DNA of 64,000 bases from an uncultured Flavobacteriales bacterium (lineage in GTDB: Bacteria; Bacteroidota; Bacteroidia; Flavobacteriales_G; Salibacteraceae), in NCBI GenBank assembly GCA_905479105.1, contig CAJQLE010000001.1:547628-611627 (forward strand). Reading direction: 5' to 3'. The position numbers and the translations under genes were made by a program. This document shows positions 18,262 to 27,823 of this stretch, one piece after another. Positions within the stretch are counted from its first letter, which is position 1. Every line of letters starts with the position of its first letter. Under the pieces are notes generated by a model. That model did no database searches. It saw only the letters and a list, made by a program, of their open reading frames with translations, and was not told the DNA's origin.

Positions 18262-18891
18262 TTGAAAAAGGCCCTTTTCATTTCTTTGGTAGTATTGATT
18301 GCCGACCAAGCAGTTAAGCTTTGGATCAAATCCAATATGTATTTGGGTCAAGAGTTTGCTGTGCTCGGTAACTGGTTCATCATTCATTTCACTGAGAACA
18401 ATGGAATGGCCTTTGGTATGGAGTTTGGCGGTGAAATAGGCAAAATAGCCCTTTCTATTTTCCGCATAATAGCCGTTTCATTCATCGGTTACTACCTGTT
18501 CAAAACCGCAAATAAAGGCGCTAAAACGGGTCTTATTATTGCTGGTTCACTTATATTTTCCGGTGCTTTAGGAAACATCTTAGACTCGATGTTTTATGGC
18601 CTTGTATTCAATGATAGTTATCATCAAATAGCCGAGTTCATGCCAGCAGAAGGTGGTTATGCACCCTTTCTTTTTGGACGTGTTGTAGACATGCTTTATT
18701 TCCCTCTCATATCTGGTGCTTTTCCTGATTGGATGCCTCTTTGGGGAGGAGAACAGTTTATGTTTTTTAGACCCGTTTTTAATCTCGCTGACACAGCCAT
18801 TACAACTGGCATAGGGATGATCATTGTATTTCAGAAGCGCTATTTCCCAGAAGAAAACAAGACCGAAACGCCCGCTTCCGAGGCAGCCTAA
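18262..18891 (+). CDS. lspA: Lipoprotein signal peptidase (signal peptidase II)
   Basis: A 209-residue, four-membrane-segment aspartyl protease that removes signal peptides from prolipoproteins in the inner membrane. The catalytic aspartates are Asp108 in GALGNILDSMF and Asp177 in PVFNLADTAI; the conserved FTENNGMAFG segment is near residue 43. A periplasmic insertion at about residues 118-168 makes it longer than E. coli LspA, as is normal in Bacteroidota. The start is TTG at 18262, preceded at 5-9 nt by AGGAG, one of the few clear Shine-Dalgarno sequences in the window. The substrates include the many lipoproteins encoded here. Its TAA stop overlaps the convergent gene stop in CTAA. Confidence 0.94.
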   Translation: MKKALFISLVVLIADQAVKLWIKSNMYLGQEFAVLGNWFIIHFTENNGMAFGMEFGGEIGKIALSIFRIIAVSFIGYYLFKTANKGAKTGLIIAGSLIFSGALGNILDSMFYGLVFNDSYHQIAEFMPAEGGYAPFLFGRVVDMLYFPLISGAFPDWMPLWGGEQFMFFRPVFNLADTAITTGIGMIIVFQKRYFPEENKTETPASEAA

Positions 18892-19370
18892 AACGCCACA
18901 AACACCATCTTTTTTGTGTCGATCGTTTTCCCATCTATGATCAAGTTGTAGAAGTAAGTTCTTACTTTCCCATACCCATGGTCATATAAAATCTCATTGA
19001 CTCCCATTTTAATTGAGGTGGTCATTTGCTGCGCCATTTGACCTTGAGTGTCTGTAATAGTTATCAAAGCCTTATCGCTTTGCGGGCGATCGTGAACAAT
19101 AAACCCGATCATCGTGCTTTCGTCAAATGGATTCGGCCTGTTTTGAAGAAGTTCTATTCCCTTTTTCACCTCGGGTTCGTCCGTACTCAAAATTTGAATG
19201 AATTGTTCTCCTGAAAACAAGCTTTCAATTCCATCCTCATTGACCCTAGCCACCGAAAAGAAATGGTTATAGCCGGGAATGATTTTCACTTCAGACATAT
19301 TCTCAGTAACGGTGATCACGGTATCCCAATCGTTTGTCTCTGTTCTATAAGCAATTCTATGTGGATTGTT
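18888..19370 (-). pseudogene. C-terminal T9SS sorting tail separated from the M28 peptidase by a frameshift
   Basis: This reading frame encodes the missing end of the peptidase at 19357-20586. Read from the frameshift it gives NNPHRIAYRTETNDWDTV, then a fibronectin-like stretch (GYNHFFSVARVNEDG) and a classical type A T9SS tail (LLQNRPNPFDESTMIGF and YFYNLIIDGKTI). It has no methionine start near its true beginning; a GTG at 19319 is the only nearby start and would begin inside a beta strand. Frame continuity with the peptidase is restored by dropping one base near 19370. It is most easily read as the 3' part of one gene carrying a +1 frameshift, a sequencing error, or a very unusual programmed shift. 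The stop shares CTAA with lspA. Confidence 0.75.
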
Positions 19371-20586
19371 CTACTGTAAAACCTAAATCTGAACACACGT
19401 TCTGTGCTATCATGGTTGCTGCATTCGCGTTAATGACAGCGTTTCTTGCTAAGTAATTGAAATCAACAAAAAACGAGTCAAGCTGACCGTCATTGTCTGT
19501 GTCCAATCCTAAGATGTCATCACTCGTATGTTGTCGATCATCATAATTTGGCCCATTTGAAGCATCGCCATGTTCATTGGCAGAGGTGAATCGCATAGCA
19601 GGATACCCTGCACTTCGGAATGGAATATGATCACCTCCTCTGCCCGTTCTGTCCTCCGCAGTCATAATGGTCACCAAATGAGGAACTTCAACGTGCGCAA
19701 GAAGCTCTTCTTCATATTGCAACTTAATGTAACGCGCTAATTGCTTACTAGGTGAGTTAAAGCTACCACCTGAAAACAACCTAACTTGGGTACTGTCCAC
19801 AGCATTTTCACTTGGACATGAAGGAGGGGAACTCGTCTCTCCACAAATCACCCCGCCTATAACATCATTATTCAAAACAGCCGCAATAGGTATGTTATTA
19901 TCCCCGCAATATTTTGCCATTGCTTCCGCACCATGCAAGCCTTGCTCTTCTCCGGTAGTAAGCATAAATACAATGGTTCGATTATACTCATACTTAGCCA
20001 TTACCCTTGCCAATTCCATCACCAAAGCACTTCCACTTCCGTTATCTTCCATTCCTTCGGCCAAACATGAAGTATCACATGAAGTATTGCATCTGCTATC
20101 CAAATGACCTTCAATGATGATGATTCCCGTTTGGCTGGAGTTAAAGTCCGGTGTTTGCTTTCCTGGCAAAACGGCTACTACATTTTTATGCTGAGTAATA
20201 CCACATATGTTTCTATCAAATTGAAGAAAAGAAATTTTTAATCGACTCTCATTTTCATTGCTAAACTTTTCAAACATTTGATATGCCCACCTTCTAGCAG
20301 CACCAATCCCTCTTGAATCAGAAATGGTGTCTGATCCTGTATTTCGCGTTTCAAACGCACTCATTCGTTTCAAATAGCTCCGCAATGAATCAGCATTTAC
20401 CCGAGAGCTAAGCTCCGCGGCAATTGCGTGTGGATCCGTAAAAGAGACGGAGGGTTGATAATCATTTGGGTTATAGTTTCCCGCCAAAATTTCAGTCACT
20501 TCGGAGTTTGTAAGGTGAATATTCACCTGTGCTATAGCAGCCACGTTTGCTAGAATAAAGCCAAGGGCAATTATAGATTTATGCAT
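19357..20586 (-). CDS. Secreted M28 family zinc metallopeptidase (body; normal C-terminus lost by frameshift)
   Basis: A 409-residue exported peptidase with a signal peptide ending AIAQ (residue 20). Zinc-binding and catalytic signatures of the M28 aminopeptidase family are visible: GHLDSR, EDNGSGSAL, TTGEEQGLHGA with the paired Glu, LNNDVIGG, and GGDHIPF near the C-terminus. Predicted activity is removal of amino-terminal residues from peptides outside the cell. The frame stops at 19357, just after a normal-looking catalytic domain, but the region after it, in another frame, carries the expected fibronectin-like and T9SS sorting domains. If the lesion is real the enzyme would be exported to the periplasm but not sorted by T9SS. 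Upstream, TACTTTTC resembles a -7 box. Confidence 0.9.
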   Translation of the reverse strand: MHKSIIALGFILANVAAIAQVNIHLTNSEVTEILAGNYNPNDYQPSVSFTDPHAIAAELSSRVNADSLRSYLKRMSAFETRNTGSDTISDSRGIGAARRWAYQMFEKFSNENESRLKISFLQFDRNICGITQHKNVVAVLPGKQTPDFNSSQTGIIIIEGHLDSRCNTSCDTSCLAEGMEDNGSGSALVMELARVMAKYEYNRTIVFMLTTGEEQGLHGAEAMAKYCGDNNIPIAAVLNNDVIGGVICGETSSPPSCPSENAVDSTQVRLFSGGSFNSPSKQLARYIKLQYEEELLAHVEVPHLVTIMTAEDRTGRGGDHIPFRSAGYPAMRFTSANEHGDASNGPNYDDRQHTSDDILGLDTDNDGQLDSFFVDFNYLARNAVINANAATMIAQNVCSDLGFTVEQST

Positions 20587-20664: not shown

Positions 20665-20964
20665 ATGAGCTCAGAAGCAAAACAACAAATTCATCTTAGA
20701 CGATTCATTCTGATTAGTCGCGCAGAGGGTGTGTCCTTTCTTTTATTGGTTTTGATAGGTATGCCGCTCAAGTATATGGCTGGTATGCCGCTGATGGTAA
20801 AATACGTTGGGTGGGCTCACGGATTATTGTTTATGGCCTATATCGCCCAAATGCTCTATGTGGCTTATCTCCTCAAGTGGGAAGTTCTAAAAGTTATCTA
20901 TGGGTTTATTGCCGCTCTGCTCCCTTTCGGACCCTTTGTGTTTGAAAGAAGTTTGAAAAGCTAA
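20665..20964 (+). CDS. DUF3817 integral membrane protein
   Basis: A 99-residue protein with three likely membrane segments (about 18-38, 46-66 and 75-94). The sequence RAEGVSFLLLVLIGMPLKYMAG and the HGLLFMAYI segment are typical of DUF3817 proteins. This small membrane family is widespread and its role is unknown. It is transcribed divergently from the M28 peptidase and convergent with the adhesin operon, whose last stop lies 7 nt away. Confidence 0.85.
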   Translation: MSSEAKQQIHLRRFILISRAEGVSFLLLVLIGMPLKYMAGMPLMVKYVGWAHGLLFMAYIAQMLYVAYLLKWEVLKVIYGFIAALLPFGPFVFERSLKS

Positions 20965-20971
20965 TTAAGTC

Positions 20972-21997
20972 CTACTGAATAATAACCCTCTTCAAAAAGG
21001 TTGACCCTTGAAGTTGAATAGACAAGGTATAAACTCCAGCGGCTATTGATGTAACATTAAGCTCATCAGCGTTCTCAACCTCTAACACCTTATTTCCAGC
21101 CAGATCATACAAAGACAGCATTTGAGGCATCTCGTTATTGCTTAGCTGAACGTGCAAAAGATCACGTGTAGGGTTTGGGAATATTTTTAAGCTCAACGAC
21201 TCTAAGTTCTTTTGACCAAGAATCAGCACGGCAAATACTGTATCACTCGTTGAACACCCCGCTTCATTAAACACGGTAAGTGTGTAGCTTCCAGATGCTT
21301 CAATCGCAGTCGTTGAGTCTGTAGAACTTGTTGACCATAAATATTGATCATAGGATCCCGGTGAACCAATCACTGGTGAGCTCCAAACGAAAAGTGTATC
21401 CTCCGCAAACGACATCATGGGGCTTTCATTATCTGACTGAACCTCAAATGACGATGTAAAAGAGCAGCCTGCTTGGTCGGTAACTGTAAGATCATAAACT
21501 CCACCTGCAAGATCGGTTATGTTAGATGAGCTATCACCATTACTCCAAGCATAGGCGTAATTCCCCGCTCCTCCAATTACAGAAAGGCTTAAAGAGCCAT
21601 CATTGCGCTCTGGACAAGTAGTGTTTTCAATGTCAACTTGGTTTGTGTCAAGCTCGTCATAAACCATTATCATAACCTCATTTGAATAGGCCTCTTCTCC
21701 ACAAACCAGAGACACAGATTTCCTTCTAAAATAAGTGTCTTCAGTAAGCGCACCTGATTGATAGGAAGTATCTGTATTTGCACCTTGAGCCATCTGCCAA
21801 GAACCTGAGGCTGTTGAATCTTGCCACTCATACGTATATACCCCATTCGATCCCTCCGGTAAGGAATTATTCAAAAACGCAGGAGGAGTAGAATTAAAAC
21901 AGATCGTATCAACAACTTGAGCTTGAACGGCCACAGCAAACCATAGAAGTCCAAAAACAGCCAAAATTAATCCTCCTATGTTGCTTCTTTTTAACAT
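20972..21997 (-). CDS. Secreted SprB-like repeat protein with T9SS type A sorting tail (last gene of adhesin operon)
   Basis: A 341-residue product taking the start at 21997 (MLKRSNIGG), which directly gives a signal peptide ending VQAQ; the longer frame from 22024 would overlap the previous gene. After the signal come a domain beginning DTICFNSTPP with YTYEWQDS and YFRRK, one SprB-like module (NTTCPERNDGSLSLSV, YAYAWSNGDSS, YDLTVTDQAGC), a second Ig-like module, and a C-terminal T9SS tail (LKIFPNPTRDLLHVQL, GVYTLSIQ, FLKRVIIQ). It begins 1 nt after the stop of the 580-residue protein gene. It is the only one of the three operon proteins with a sorting tail and so is the only one expected to be anchored or secreted by T9SS by itself. 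Confidence 0.85.
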   Translation of the reverse strand: MLKRSNIGGLILAVFGLLWFAVAVQAQVVDTICFNSTPPAFLNNSLPEGSNGVYTYEWQDSTASGSWQMAQGANTDTSYQSGALTEDTYFRRKSVSLVCGEEAYSNEVMIMVYDELDTNQVDIENTTCPERNDGSLSLSVIGGAGNYAYAWSNGDSSSNITDLAGGVYDLTVTDQAGCSFTSSFEVQSDNESPMMSFAEDTLFVWSSPVIGSPGSYDQYLWSTSSTDSTTAIEASGSYTLTVFNEAGCSTSDTVFAVLILGQKNLESLSLKIFPNPTRDLLHVQLSNNEMPQMLSLYDLAGNKVLEVENADELNVTSIAAGVYTLSIQLQGSTFLKRVIIQ

Positions 21998-21998
21998 T

Positions 21999-23741
21999 CT
22001 AGTTTCCAATAATAATTGATCCACCAGTAAGAACTGCTGGCTCGCTTAATGTTTCTGATGTATTGTCACTGCACCCATTCGCATCGGTTACAGTCACCGT
22101 GTATGTACCTGCTGAAATTGAATTGATATCCTCAGTTACCGCGCCATTACTCCAACTGAAGGTATATGATGTCGTTCCTCCAGAAACAGTAAGGTCAATC
22201 GCACCGTCTAAGCCACCATTACATGTAACATTTACAGCAGATGTGCTTAAAACAAGAAGAGTTGGTTCAGTTACAGTAGCGCTCTCAGTATCTGAACATC
22301 CATTAGCGTCTGTAATAGTCACAGTATAAGTTCCGGCTGATAACCCAGCGGCTGTTGCCGCGGTTGATCCGTCACTCCATAAATACGTATATGCTGTTGT
22401 GCCACCTGTTGCTGAAGCGGTGAGCGATCCGTTTGCGCCTCCATTACAAGAAACATTGACGTTTCCGGAAATTGAAGCCACTAGTATAGCGGGCTCGGTA
22501 ATAGTAACTACATCAGTATCTGTGCATCCATTAGCGTCTGTTACCGTAACAGTATAACTGCCTGCCAAAAGGCCTGTTGCCCCAGCTGTGCCAGCTCCAT
22601 TACTCCATAAAAACGAGTAAGGTGCCGTTCCTCCAGCACCTGATGCTGTGGCTGAACCATCATTTGATCCATTACATGAGGCGTTGTTAGATGAAGCAAC
22701 ATTTGCAACCAATGCCGTAGGCTCTGAAATTATCACGGCATCGGTATCCGTACATCCATTTGCATCTGTAACCGTCACAGTATATGTTCCGGCTAATAAA
22801 CCTGTTGCTGTTGCAGAACTGGCTCCATTACTCCAGGCATATGTATAGGCTCCTGTTCCACCAGAAGCTGTGGCCGTGGCAGCACCATTGGAGCCTCCAT
22901 TACACAAAACATTGGTAGATGAAGCAATAGATGCTACTAAAGCAGCCGGTTCCGAAATTGTCGTTAATTCAGTATCTGTACAGCCATTCGCGTCTGTAAC
23001 CGTAACAGTGTATGTGCCCGCAATTAATCCGGTGATTGATGCAGATGAAGCGCCATTACTCCAAGCATATGTATACGCTCCTGTTCCACCTGTTGCAGTA
23101 GCGATAGCAGAGCCCGTGTTTCCTCCATTACAAACAACATTAATAGTCGAGCCAATTGATGCAACCAATGCCGTTGGTTCACTAATAGTGAACGAGTAGT
23201 TTAATGTGCCGCATCCAGCAGCGTCCGTTACGGTTACTGTATATGTACCCGCTGTCAATCCTGTTGCTGAAGAAGCGCTTCCTCCGTTAGACCAAGAATA
23301 TATATACGGTGTATTTCCCCCTGTAATGGTCAGAGAAATCGCCCCGGTGCTTGCGCCATTACACGTAACATTAGTAACTGATGTTGAAATCGTGTCAAAT
23401 ACATCGAATACGTGTATTTGAACCGGGTTGGAATAGGCAGTTCCGCAACTCGTAGAAGTGACTTTTCTTCTGAAATAAGTAGATTGGGTCAATGAGCTTG
23501 GCTGAAAATCTAAACTATTTGAAGCTGCAATTGAAGCCCATGATCCTCCGGAAACTGAATCCTGCCATTCATAGGTAAAAGCACCATCACCGCCTGTAGC
23601 GGGTGCAGTACTTGTCAACGAATCTGGAATTCCATTAAAACAAACACTATCAATAGTTTGTGCACTCAATATCATTGGAGCAAAGAATACTGCCACAATG
23701 CTCATTTTAGCTAGGCGAGAAAGAAGTCCTTTAATCATCAT
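21999..23741 (-). CDS. Secreted six-module SprB-repeat protein without sorting tail
   Basis: A 580-residue protein with signal peptide (ending LSAQ, residue 28), a domain at 30-115 that matches the start of the next protein (DSVCFNGIPD, FTYEWQDS, YFRRK), and then six SprB-type modules of about 75 residues filling residues 121-572. Each module runs from a CNG motif through YxWSNG to TAGTYTVTVTDANGC and a SEPxxL linker. SprB repeats occur in cell-surface gliding adhesins. The protein stops at GGSIIIGN straight after the sixth module, with no T9SS sorting domain. The first ATG overlaps the previous stop (TAATG) and the next gene starts 1 nt after its stop, so the three genes are translationally coupled. 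Confidence 0.85.
   Translation of the reverse strand: MMIKGLLSRLAKMSIVAVFFAPMILSAQTIDSVCFNGIPDSLTSTAPATGGDGAFTYEWQDSVSGGSWASIAASNSLDFQPSSLTQSTYFRRKVTSTSCGTAYSNPVQIHVFDVFDTISTSVTNVTCNGASTGAISLTITGGNTPYIYSWSNGGSASSATGLTAGTYTVTVTDAAGCGTLNYSFTISEPTALVASIGSTINVVCNGGNTGSAIATATGGTGAYTYAWSNGASSASITGLIAGTYTVTVTDANGCTDTELTTISEPAALVASIASSTNVLCNGGSNGAATATASGGTGAYTYAWSNGASSATATGLLAGTYTVTVTDANGCTDTDAVIISEPTALVANVASSNNASCNGSNDGSATASGAGGTAPYSFLWSNGAGTAGATGLLAGSYTVTVTDANGCTDTDVVTITEPAILVASISGNVNVSCNGGANGSLTASATGGTTAYTYLWSDGSTAATAAGLSAGTYTVTITDANGCSDTESATVTEPTLLVLSTSAVNVTCNGGLDGAIDLTVSGGTTSYTFSWSNGAVTEDINSISAGTYTVTVTDANGCSDNTSETLSEPAVLTGGSIIIGN
22026..23381 (-). repeat. Tandem array of six ~225-nt SprB modules
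   Basis: The six modules encode near-repeated sequences, with modules 2 and 3 sharing long identical stretches (such as GGTGAYTYAWSNGASSA). The repetition also produces misleading open frames on the plus strand reading FASVTVTVYVPA. Such arrays are prone to unequal crossing-over, so copy number is likely variable between strains. Confidence 0.85.
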
Positions 23742-26700
23742 TAGTTCGTAGAAATTATTCCCCCATCTAAAAGGGCTGGTTCTGTAATTGTATCATTCGC
23801 TGATTCAGTGCATCCTGTATTATCAATTACAGTAACTGAATATATACCCGCACTTACGTTTGTAATATCCTCTGTGGCCTGGCCGCTATTCCAATTAAAA
23901 CTCAAAGGGGCGACACCGCCAGTTACTGTTAAGTCTATTGCACCATCACTATTTCCAGTGCATGAAACTGCTGTTGCAGTTGTGCTAAGGGAAAGTGTAT
24001 TACCGGTAATGGTCAAATTCAGTGTTGCTACTGAATCACAACCTGATGCATTTGTAAGAGTCGTGGTGTAGGTTCCTGAAGTTGTATAAGCAGTGCTATT
24101 AGCAGGCCAAGTATACGCAGCACACGCTGTGATCGTTTCTGATCCCGAATTGCTATTGTTTATGGTAAGGTTTAGAGTAACAACAGAGTCGCAACCACCT
24201 GTGCTTGTAACAGTAGTAACATATGACCCCGAAACCGTGTAAGCACTGCTATTGAGCGGCCACGTGTATGTGTCGCACTCGACCACCGTCTCAGAGCTAG
24301 AGAGGCCGCTTGTAATGGTGAGATTCAATGTAGCAATAGAGTCACAACCAGAGGCATTCGTCAATGTGTCCACATATGAACCTGATGCCGTGTAGGTCTG
24401 CCCATTCGTTGCCCAAGTATATGTATCGCAAGCAGTAACAGCCTCTGAACCTGAATTGCCGCTATTTATAGTTAAGTTTAAGGTGACGATGGAATCACAA
24501 CCGGCAGCCGAAATGTTGGAGTCTATGAAATTACCGCCTGAACTATAGGTTAACCCTGTGTTGTTCCACAAATAGCTATCGCAGGCCGTTACAGGAATAC
24601 TTGTATTTATTACTGAGCAAGGTGCGTCAATGACCACATCATCAATGTAAAGCAACCATTCGTCCGTGGTATTAGAATAAATAGAAACATAAATCGCTTG
24701 GCCATCGAAAGCAGACAAGTCGTAAGAATAGTCTGTGTAGCTTCCTGTTGATGGAAATATATCTTGGGCAATGATATTCGTGAAATTAACTGCGGCATTT
24801 CCTGATGTTGAAACATAAACATCAAAGTCTTCGGGATATGCTAAGCTCTGGTTTTTAGCAGAAAAACTGAATCGGTTTGAAACTCCATTGGTTACTGTAA
24901 ATTGAGGTGTAACCAGATGATCGTCATGTGCTGCAGGACTAAAGGTAATGTTCGCGCTAAACCCTCCGCCTACACCTTGACCAGAAGTCAAGACCCAAGT
25001 GTTAGCATCGCCACCATTAATTACTGTCCAGCAAGGAGATCCTGCCTCAAAATCCATGGTATAGGGAAATGCAGTAATAGGTCCGCACACTGTTGAGAAA
25101 GAATAAGGGCCTGCCCAAGCACTAGTGGAACCCGCACCGCAATCGGCCTGAACATAAAAATCATATGTAAATCCGGTAGCTAGGCCCGAAAGACTGTAGG
25201 GGTTGGAAGTTGTAGCTACTGAAGTGCCCGTGCCTTGCGTAAAACCAGATAAGCCATACTCTATATTCCAAGCCGTTTCAGTTGCCCCAGCTGTCCAAGA
25301 AAGATCTGCAGTGCTGGAGCCAATATTAGTGGCTGCTACACTTGTAGGATAAGAACATGCAGAACTCAAGTAGGAAGATGAAAACAAGCCTCTACCGTGG
25401 GTGGAGGCAATAACTTCTGAGTCACTAGTGCGCGTTTGAAGCATATCTACACGAACATTAGCTAAGCCTGAGTTGGATGGAATCCATGTTGGACTAACGC
25501 TTAGAAAATTATTGGTTGACCAGACTCCAACCTCGGTTGCTAAAATCACTTCATTGCTGTCCGTTGGATTCATAAGCGACCATCTCACGGGCATGTCCGG
25601 CAAGTTTCCTTCTTTCGAAGTCCAGGTTGTCCCTCCGTTTGACGTATACCAAACACTATTAACTCCGTAATTAAAGAATGTTACGACGATTTCATCTTCT
25701 GACGCTCCAAATTCTACAGAAGAAATTGTTGCGTTTGGAAACGATGCTCCAGCAATATTGACTACTGTAGGGCTCACTCCAATATTGGCGCTAGTAACCT
25801 TATATAAATTACCACCACCTGTTCCAATAAACAGTTTCGTTGAGATGGTAGTGTATGGCGATACTTTAATGTGAGTGGCTTTTGAGAACATGCCACTAAT
25901 AGTAACCGTAGAAGTGATGGGCGAGGTCCCTATTCCGCTTATTCGATAAATTGAATTAACGTCTTTGCAAGAATAAAGTATGTTCTGATTATCATCATAA
26001 TCTGCAGGATTGATAAAAGAACCAGTAGTTTGATCTGCAATTAAAGTTGTTCCGAATGATGCTCCACCGTTGGAGGAATAATAAAAACTATTGAAAACAT
26101 AGGATGCAATAGCTTGATTACCATTTGTTTGGTCAATAAAACAAAATGCTCCGTCACCACCAAATACCTGAGATGTGGAGTTAACACCAATAGAAGTATA
26201 ACGCTGCGTGCCGTTATCTTGTGCGCCAGCCAAAAACACATTAGAACCAGTCGTTGGGTTCATGGCGCAAGCGTAGTATTGAGTGACATTGTAATATGAA
26301 ACTTGGTGTGAAATAGCGCTCGGTGAACTAACCGCGGTAGATAATGAAGATGCGTAATAAACCCCACCATCATTGCCAATTACAGCCTCATTCGCTGCTC
26401 CTGGTCTAAATACGAATGCATGTTGGTCTGCATGAACCAGCGGACATGATAAAGCTGCTAGGTTATTATTATTGCTCCATTTCGAGATTTGCGACCAAGT
26501 TAACCCAGCATTCGAAGATCTAAATAGATCTATTCCGCCAACATATAATGTGTTAGCATCAGTCGGGTCAACTTCGCAGACAAGATCGTACCACGCTTGA
26601 CCTCTGGTAAAGTCAGTATTGGGAATTCCGTTATCGACATCCGCGGGTTCAGTTATAGTCATCGATGACGATGAACTTGTCCATGCCGTTCCAGCATTCG

Positions 26701-27823
26701 TGGTTTTAATAACTTCATCTACTGCGCTGGAAGCTTCAACTACAGCATAAACTACATTGCTGTTACTTGGTGCGCAAGCAATCTCAACCCGCCTATTTGA
26801 TCCTCTAACGGTTGATACAGTCCAGGTCGTTCCATTATCAGAATACAAAATCGTACCACCTCCATTACCATAGGAATTGGCTCTTGTTCCGACCCAAATG
26901 CGATTGTTTGCAGCTATTTCAATATCGGCTGGCGCATAGAAGCTATTGGCCACTCCTGTTGTAGGCATTACTTGTGTGAATGTTGTACCGCCATTTGTAG
27001 AGCGAAACATACCTTGTGAGGTGTTAGCAAATCCTTGCCAAGCACCTTGATAGTACATTTGACTAGTTCCAACGTACAATGCGCTGACCCCACTCTCGTC
27101 TCTTACAACAAGGTCGTTCACATAATAATAATCATCTGTAGCAGAAAGTTGGGTAAAAGACGTTCCTCCGTTTGTGCTTTTCCAAACACCGGCTCCACGA
27201 CTGCTTCCTGTTCCAAAACCTTCTCCAGTTCCTACATAAATGATTTGACTGTTATTTGGATCAAACGCTATTGTAGTAACCGCAAGATTGTCCCAAAAAT
27301 CATTTACAGCTATCCACTGTGATGCCGCATTTGTAATGTCAGAATTATACCACAATCCACCCGTAACACCACCAGCCCAGACTTTTTTATTGGTTAGGTC
27401 GTTTGGGTCAAACACAATAGCCCTTGTTCTGCCACCGACATTGTTTGGGCCACGTTCAATCCAAGGAATGGTAACAGACCCTGGGATTCCCGCTTGGCTT
27501 GCTTGATAAGCATCTACTGCATTGTGTGCATTAATAAGCCGTTCGTTAGCTGGCCTTCCCAACACGGGGTCCATCGTTCTTAAAAAATCCTGCTCCCATC
27601 CCAAGTCTGGGCGATCTTCTTTCGGAATTGCTTTTAACTCTTCCTTGGTGTAATGTTTTCGTTTCGAAAATGGATGATTCTCTAAATACTGCTCATACTT
27701 TGCCCTGTTAGCGGGATCAGTCGCGTCAAAATCAGGCGTAATTACAACTGAAGGTCTTTGCGCAAAAAGCGAAAAACTTTGAATGAATATGGCAAGAAAT
27801 AGTATCGATTTACGACACATCAT
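23741..27823 (-). CDS. Large secreted BNR/VPS10-like multi-domain protein, first of the adhesin operon
   Basis: A 1360-residue protein with signal peptide (ending LFAQ, residue 22) and a charged N-terminal segment (residues 23-100). Residues ~100-820 contain many Asp-box-like blades: STNGGTSFT, GTGEGFGTGS, SNGGASF, YTSNGGTTW, and ATHGRGLF, a sortilin/glycosidase-like propeller fold. A fibronectin type III domain follows near 830-905 (TADLSWTAGATETAWNIEYG), then a choice-of-anchor/MAM-like beta-sandwich (FPYTMDFEAGSPCW) to about 1065. Four ~50-residue TACDxYxW modules and one SprB module complete it. It ends at EPALLDGGIISTN without a sorting tail. Its stop overlaps the next gene start in TAATG. 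Function is probably adhesion or glycan binding; no catalytic residue can be assigned. Confidence 0.8.
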   Translation of the reverse strand: MMCRKSILFLAIFIQSFSLFAQRPSVVITPDFDATDPANRAKYEQYLENHPFSKRKHYTKEELKAIPKEDRPDLGWEQDFLRTMDPVLGRPANERLINAHNAVDAYQASQAGIPGSVTIPWIERGPNNVGGRTRAIVFDPNDLTNKKVWAGGVTGGLWYNSDITNAASQWIAVNDFWDNLAVTTIAFDPNNSQIIYVGTGEGFGTGSSRGAGVWKSTNGGTSFTQLSATDDYYYVNDLVVRDESGVSALYVGTSQMYYQGAWQGFANTSQGMFRSTNGGTTFTQVMPTTGVANSFYAPADIEIAANNRIWVGTRANSYGNGGGTILYSDNGTTWTVSTVRGSNRRVEIACAPSNSNVVYAVVEASSAVDEVIKTTNAGTAWTSSSSSMTITEPADVDNGIPNTDFTRGQAWYDLVCEVDPTDANTLYVGGIDLFRSSNAGLTWSQISKWSNNNNLAALSCPLVHADQHAFVFRPGAANEAVIGNDGGVYYASSLSTAVSSPSAISHQVSYYNVTQYYACAMNPTTGSNVFLAGAQDNGTQRYTSIGVNSTSQVFGGDGAFCFIDQTNGNQAIASYVFNSFYYSSNGGASFGTTLIADQTTGSFINPADYDDNQNILYSCKDVNSIYRISGIGTSPITSTVTISGMFSKATHIKVSPYTTISTKLFIGTGGGNLYKVTSANIGVSPTVVNIAGASFPNATISSVEFGASEDEIVVTFFNYGVNSVWYTSNGGTTWTSKEGNLPDMPVRWSLMNPTDSNEVILATEVGVWSTNNFLSVSPTWIPSNSGLANVRVDMLQTRTSDSEVIASTHGRGLFSSSYLSSACSYPTSVAATNIGSSTADLSWTAGATETAWNIEYGLSGFTQGTGTSVATTSNPYSLSGLATGFTYDFYVQADCGAGSTSAWAGPYSFSTVCGPITAFPYTMDFEAGSPCWTVINGGDANTWVLTSGQGVGGGFSANITFSPAAHDDHLVTPQFTVTNGVSNRFSFSAKNQSLAYPEDFDVYVSTSGNAAVNFTNIIAQDIFPSTGSYTDYSYDLSAFDGQAIYVSIYSNTTDEWLLYIDDVVIDAPCSVINTSIPVTACDSYLWNNTGLTYSSGGNFIDSNISAAGCDSIVTLNLTINSGNSGSEAVTACDTYTWATNGQTYTASGSYVDTLTNASGCDSIATLNLTITSGLSSSETVVECDTYTWPLNSSAYTVSGSYVTTVTSTGGCDSVVTLNLTINNSNSGSETITACAAYTWPANSTAYTTSGTYTTTLTNASGCDSVATLNLTITGNTLSLSTTATAVSCTGNSDGAIDLTVTGGVAPLSFNWNSGQATEDITNVSAGIYSVTVIDNTGCTESANDTITEPALLDGGIISTN
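23999..24602 (-). repeat. Four tandem ~150-nt TACDxYxW modules
   Basis: Four ~50-residue units each begin with xACDxYxW, carry SG(S/T/N)Y/F in the middle and end GCDSxxTLNLTI. The fourth has Ala in place of the Asp (TACAAYTW). Modules of this kind recur in Bacteroidota secreted proteins. Confidence 0.8.

What the first reader, a model, noticed from the sequence alone, without database searches (positions are those of the whole stretch)
20972..27823. Three coupled surface-protein genes share modules, but only the last carries a T9SS sorting tail
Genes 23741-27823, 21999-23741 and 20972-21997 are joined by a TAATG overlap and a 1-nt gap, and each has its own signal peptide. The first ends EPALLDGGIISTN and the second ends EPAVLTGGSIIIGN directly after a SprB module; neither has a sorting domain. 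The second and third begin with matching domains (CFN, YEWQDS, YFRRK). This looks like one giant adhesin split at module boundaries, or a set of proteins that reach the surface by binding to the tailed last member. T9SS sorting through a C-terminal domain is established; a multi-chain cargo is inference.
Basis: partly seen in the sequence, partly recalled or inferred. Interest (0 to 1): 0.62.

Follow-up and report, generated by a model that had tools for sequence, protein, structure and literature searches.

The report
Three surface proteins sharing one tag
Three neighbouring genes of a Flavobacteriales bacterium look like a relay in which an effector protein and a spacer, both lacking the usual type 9 secretion tag, are built to hook onto a small third protein that carries it, an arrangement kept in related genomes while the effector itself is exchanged.

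Summary
A (23741-27823), B (21999-23741) and C (20972-21997) are coupled genes, each with a signal peptide; only C has a T9SS type A sorting domain. B and C start with the same ~90-aa module (45% identical).

The arrangement is conserved: six A-B-C loci in five genomes, including a second genus. Their A effector regions are unrelated in four loci (propeller-like, M43 peptidase, two others). A and B always end in a special terminal SprB repeat plus a short tail (GG-x-I-x-x-N). Ten such terminal repeats form one clade apart from 44 internal repeats. B and C always start with the module. All 19 complete A homologues elsewhere carry their own sorting domain and none has the module; in one genome a tagged paralogue lies next to a tail-bearing A.

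This is therefore neither a sequencing artefact nor, most likely, a recently split adhesin. The best reading is an adaptor cassette giving A and B the sorting signal in trans: A's end docks on B, B's end on C, and C's domain takes the set to the surface. Docking and co-export are inferred; AlphaFold gave no support for a docked tail. T9SS machinery is present. New variant of a known kind.

The parts
23741..27823 (-). Gene A, 1360 aa: signal peptide, propeller-like (BNR type) region, FN3, choice-of-anchor J domain, repeats, one terminal SprB repeat, short tail; no sorting domain
23744..24001 (-). Terminal SprB repeat plus tail of A (ends EPALLDGGIISTN)
   Evidence: same clade as the other A and B ends
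23744..23770 (-). A-type tail LDGGIISTN
21999..23741 (-). Gene B, 580 aa: signal peptide, N-terminal module, SprB array, terminal SprB repeat, tail; no sorting domain
23397..23660 (-). N-terminal module of B (QTIDSVCFN...YEWQDS...YFRRK...)
   Evidence: AlphaFold pLDDT 72-90 over most of it
22002..22268 (-). Terminal SprB repeat plus tail of B (ends EPAVLTGGSIIIGN)
22002..22031 (-). B-type tail LTGGSIIIGN
20972..21997 (-). Gene C, 341 aa: signal peptide, N-terminal module, SprB repeat, Ig-like domain, T9SS type A sorting domain
21647..21919 (-). N-terminal module of C (QVVDTICFN...YEWQDS...YFRRK...)
20975..21184 (-). T9SS type A C-terminal sorting domain of C
   Evidence: PF18962 2.9e-12, TIGR04183 1.6e-12
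23739..23743 (-). A/B junction, TAATG stop-start overlap
21995..22001 (-). B/C junction, TAG-A-ATG

Best explanation
The three genes encode a non-covalent relay that supplies a T9SS sorting signal in trans. Each chain enters the periplasm by Sec with its own signal peptide (shown by sequence). The terminal SprB repeat and short tail of A pair with the N-terminal module of B, and the equivalent end of B pairs with the module of C (inferred from their exclusive, repeated co-occurrence). C is in effect the last part of an ordinary type A cargo (SprB, Ig-like, sorting domain) fitted with its own signal peptide and socket. Its sorting domain brings the A-B-C complex through SprA, or holds A and B at the surface, where PorU can process C (inferred). 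The effector A is the exchangeable part and B sets the spacing.
For: Six A-B-C loci in five genomes and two genera with the same order, ends and starts; the sorting domain is on C in all. Four unrelated A effector regions (blastp E of window A against the others at least 0.2), but A ends 47-55%, B modules 52-63% and C modules 44-55% identical between distant loci. Ten A/B terminal SprB repeats form one clade, support 98/91, apart from 44 internal repeats that group by protein. B and C modules group together, 99/95, with one fused module. All 19 complete A homologues elsewhere end in a type A sorting domain; none has the module. In G015 a 58% identical paralogue of A, with its own sorting domain, lies directly downstream of the cassette. 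Tails match the segment that leads into fused copies of the module (L..[GN].[IVL] in 418/532), not the start of a SprB repeat. SprA and PorU are encoded. Residues ~106-341 of C match the C-termini of several ordinary tagged cargos of the genome.
Against: No direct evidence of binding or export. In a poor AlphaFold model of whole B (mean pLDDT 47.7) the tail was disordered and not docked on B's own module. In a fused homologue the equivalent linker was not predicted as a strand (also poor), so a donor-strand pairing is not supported. T9SS is described as requiring a folded C-terminal domain on the cargo itself (PMC9251779, PMC11285876). Pairing rests on six loci, three of them close relatives.
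Confidence: 0.55

Rival explanations
1. One giant adhesin was split by gene fission; the chains now act separately and the tails are remnants of the inter-module linker.
For: The chain ends and starts fall at a boundary that is continuous in fused proteins of other Bacteroidota, where the segment reads L.aGtIs..QTIC.
Against: Close and distant A homologues never contain the module; the same B-C pair stands behind unrelated A proteins; terminal repeats and tails stayed conserved while internal repeats turned over.
Confidence: 0.15
2. A and B are independent periplasmic or otherwise exported proteins that merely share an operon with a tagged protein; the shared domains are ordinary repeats.
For: Each has its own signal peptide; no export data; AlphaFold shows no docked tail.
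Against: All complete A homologues elsewhere are tagged for T9SS; in this genome the module occurs only at the starts of B and C and the special terminal repeats only precede them.
Confidence: 0.17
3. The terminal SprB repeat plus tail is itself a new sorting signal read directly by a T9SS shuttle, without help from C.
For: Conserved at the C-terminus of A and B in all six loci; different CTD types with dedicated shuttles are known (PMC12618676).
Against: The A and B ends are only found directly upstream of genes starting with the module; the tail is 9-10 residues and the rest is a SprB repeat.
Confidence: 0.08
4. Recoding (frameshift or readthrough) joins the frames into one polyprotein.
For: Overlapping stop and start in the window.
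Against: In G015 locus C13 the genes are 39 and 17 bases apart; the joined product would carry signal peptides inside it, and those regions are conserved only as hydrophobic signal peptides (B signal peptides 19-43% identical between distant loci).
Confidence: 0.02

Closest known systems
T9SS type A cargo with C-terminal sorting domain (TIGR04183/PF18962), e.g. RemA and RemZ of Flavobacterium johnsoniae
   Same: C has the domain; RemA and RemZ contain fused relatives of the B/C module
   Different: RemA and RemZ hold module and sorting domain in one chain; here A and B have no sorting domain
SprB-repeat giant adhesins and the Aureispira grappling hook protein GhpA
   Same: Arrays of SprB/Ig-like repeats; GhpA is the best sequence and fold match to B
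   Different: Those are single giant chains; this is split over three chains with specialised ends
Hitchhiker co-export by Tat (cited in PMC9251779) and T2SS export of complexes assembled in the periplasm
   Same: A subunit without the signal would ride on one that has it
   Different: Different machinery; no T9SS example was found in the papers searched
Cohesin-dockerin scaffolds (own knowledge)
   Same: Exchangeable effectors with a common docking end joined to an anchored scaffold
   Different: Domains are unrelated; each scaffold chain here offers one socket

Membership tests
T9SS type A cargo | Sec signal peptide on each chain | tested here: met
   By inspection of sequence: A, B and C in all six loci; the start codon of A in G010 is unresolved
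T9SS type A cargo | C-terminal sorting domain on the chain | tested here: not met
   Met by C; not met by A or B; B's 28-bit TIGR04183 score is a repeat artefact
T9SS type A cargo | Host encodes SprA and PorU | tested here: met
   PF14349 3e-158; NF033707 1256 bits
T9SS type A cargo | Export depends on T9SS | not testable with these tools
   Needs an experiment
SprB-repeat proteins (PF13573) | SprB repeats above the gathering score | tested here: met
   B 214 bits, C 32 bits; A of the window was not reported at E 0.01, although its terminal repeat aligns with the others
Donor-strand assembled subunits | Incomplete domain completed by a strand of the neighbour | tested here: inconclusive
   Module of B is well predicted alone by AlphaFold, the tail is undocked; the linker of a fused homologue is not a strand; both models poor overall
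Cohesin-dockerin | Cohesin and dockerin domains | tested here: not met
   No such Pfam match in A, B or C

The most novel reading that the evidence does not exclude
A plug-and-socket pair (terminal SprB repeat with GGxIxxN tail, and the N-terminal module) lets T9SS export multi-chain cargo with the sorting domain supplied in trans, so that effectors can be exchanged on a fixed carrier.
Probability: 0.4. Interest if true: 0.8.

Novelty: new variant of a known kind. Interest (0 to 1): 0.6.

Why it matters
T9SS cargo is recognised, in annotation and in experiments, by a sorting domain on the same chain. If A and B travel with C, secreted proteins without that domain are being missed in Bacteroidota, and the T9SS can carry non-covalent complexes. 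It would also give a short portable end-and-socket pair for surface display.

Tried and rejected
A joined B-tail and C construct for structure prediction needed a frame-shifting code that the tool does not accept; dropped. AlphaFold of whole B and of two fused modules was too poor to judge docking. A first mixed alignment misplaced the fragments. Sequencing error rejected. The N-terminal Q of B and C was first taken as part of a module cut at a precise point; rejected as evidence because the Q-rule explains it. An exact tail pattern in 395 genomes of the class found only the known loci plus chance matches outside repeat proteins. The C chain was not found outside the family in the order (42 genomes) or in a sample of 395 genomes of the phylum. 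Other split starts among the fetched loci were sought and not found. Literature searches found no T9SS cargo with a sorting domain in trans; most subscription journals are not held.

Full report
Check of the observation. Genes A, B and C lie as described on the minus strand, with a one-base overlap (TAATG) and a one-base gap. All three have signal peptides ending in front of Q, the usual Bacteroidota cut (PMC5837995). Only C has a T9SS type A sorting domain. B exceeds the TIGR04183 cut-off by summed score, but no single stretch passes and the match lies inside a SprB repeat, so this is not a sorting domain. The module at the start of B and C occurs nowhere else in the genome.

Relatives. A is 98% identical in G003, 83% in G011 and cut by a contig end in G008. 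The same stops and starts follow in G003 and G011. Searching with the module and with C gave three more loci: one in G010 of the same genus and two in G015 of another genus. A scan of named genomes returned the same loci, from Salibacteraceae and Flavobacteriales metagenome assemblies. No full-length C was found in the rest of the family and order or in 395 genomes of the phylum.

Anatomy common to all loci. A ends in GGIISTN, GGTIITN, PGNVSTN or AGTVLTN; B ends in GGSIIIGN, GGSITTGN, GGSIITGN or GGSILTGN. A-type and B-type tails differ by one residue in length and keep their type across loci. B and C begin, after the signal peptide, with Q and a C[FY] six residues on, then the WQDS...RR module. 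C always ends in the sorting domain.

What the module and tail are. The module is a common repeat of giant Bacteroidota surface proteins, including RemA of F. johnsoniae. There it follows a segment of the form L..[GN].[IVL] in 418 of 532 distinct junctions (117 in the strict form L..G.[IV]); the tails fit the strict form in 12 of 12, internal SprB borders in 0 of 55. The pattern was chosen after looking at the tails, so the figures describe rather than test. The tails thus resemble what precedes the module in one-chain proteins, although there the spacing to the first cysteine is not identical.

Exchangeable effector, conserved docking parts. The effector regions of A are unrelated between the window, G010 (M43 peptidase with GEVED) and the two G015 loci; the matches seen between G010 and G015 lie in SprB repeats. 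The ends of A, the modules of B and C and the ends of B stay 44-63% identical between distant loci. In a tree of SprB units the ten terminal repeats form one clade (98/91) apart from 44 internal repeats, which group by protein as expected of repeat turnover; the alignment is short and most inner forks are weak. The ten B and C modules group with one fused module from a Paludibacteraceae genome (99/95) but do not split cleanly into B and C.

Loss of the tag from A. Nineteen complete A homologues from other genera, at 34-60% identity in the propeller region, all have a type A sorting domain, and none has the module. In G015 a 2287-aa protein, 58% identical to that locus's A and carrying its own sorting domain, lies directly downstream of the cassette. 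In C the part after the module matches the C-termini of several ordinary tagged cargos of the same genome. So the A lineage of the window appears to have exchanged a covalent tag for an end that goes with a separate carrier.

Mechanism. SprA and PorU are present, so C should be exported and processed. That A and B go with it is inferred from the exclusive pairing of end and module at all twelve junctions, from the loss of the tag from A, and from exchange of the effector. The order of events (complex formed in the periplasm, or A and B captured at the surface) is open. Covalent joining of chains seems unlikely because the mature N-termini are expected to be blocked pyroglutamate (Q-rule, PMC5837995). 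A donor-strand mechanism was considered; the AlphaFold results do not support it and are too poor to reject it.

Codon use. Near the A tail and around the B/C junction, synonymous codons are more conserved between the window and G011 than in the rest of the genes (last 20 codons of A: 14/17 identical against 47% overall; last 40 codons of B: 36/39 against 65%). This may reflect translational coupling or local recombination and was not followed further.

Comparison and novelty. Individually all parts are known kinds (SprB repeats, RemA-like module, type A sorting domain). A sorting domain in trans with dedicated ends and sockets was not found in the held literature, with the limit that subscription journals are mostly missing. 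Published statements that T9SS requires a CTD on the cargo (PMC11285876, PMC9251779) show why it would be a surprise. Verdict: new variant of a known kind, mechanism inferred.

Noticed in passing
window 18888-20586 (-): An M28 aminopeptidase gene that is one 583-aa frame in G003 and G011 is broken in the window into 409 aa and a second frame; about 16 codons are missing near 19.35 kb and the frame changes. The second piece, with the C-terminal domain, has no signal peptide; it looks like a damaged gene or an assembly error.
   Followed up: partly
L239:7393-14256 (G015): Paralogue of the A protein with its own sorting domain, directly downstream of an A-B-C cassette.
   Followed up: yes
L096:5542-7056: B of G003 lacks one SprB repeat compared with the window (504 against 580 aa), an example of repeat-number change with ends unchanged.
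   Followed up: no
window 21900-22120: Synonymous codons around the B/C junction are unusually conserved between the window and G011.
   Followed up: partly
G000:C1:289557-291827: A second, diverged PorU-like sequence with an in-frame TAA.
   Followed up: no
G000:C3:97421-98113: Remains of a tagged cargo gene with two stop codons in its C-terminal part.
   Followed up: no
window 20665-20964 (+): Small convergent membrane-protein gene (99 aa, DUF3817-like by eye) ending 7 bases from the stop of C.
   Followed up: no
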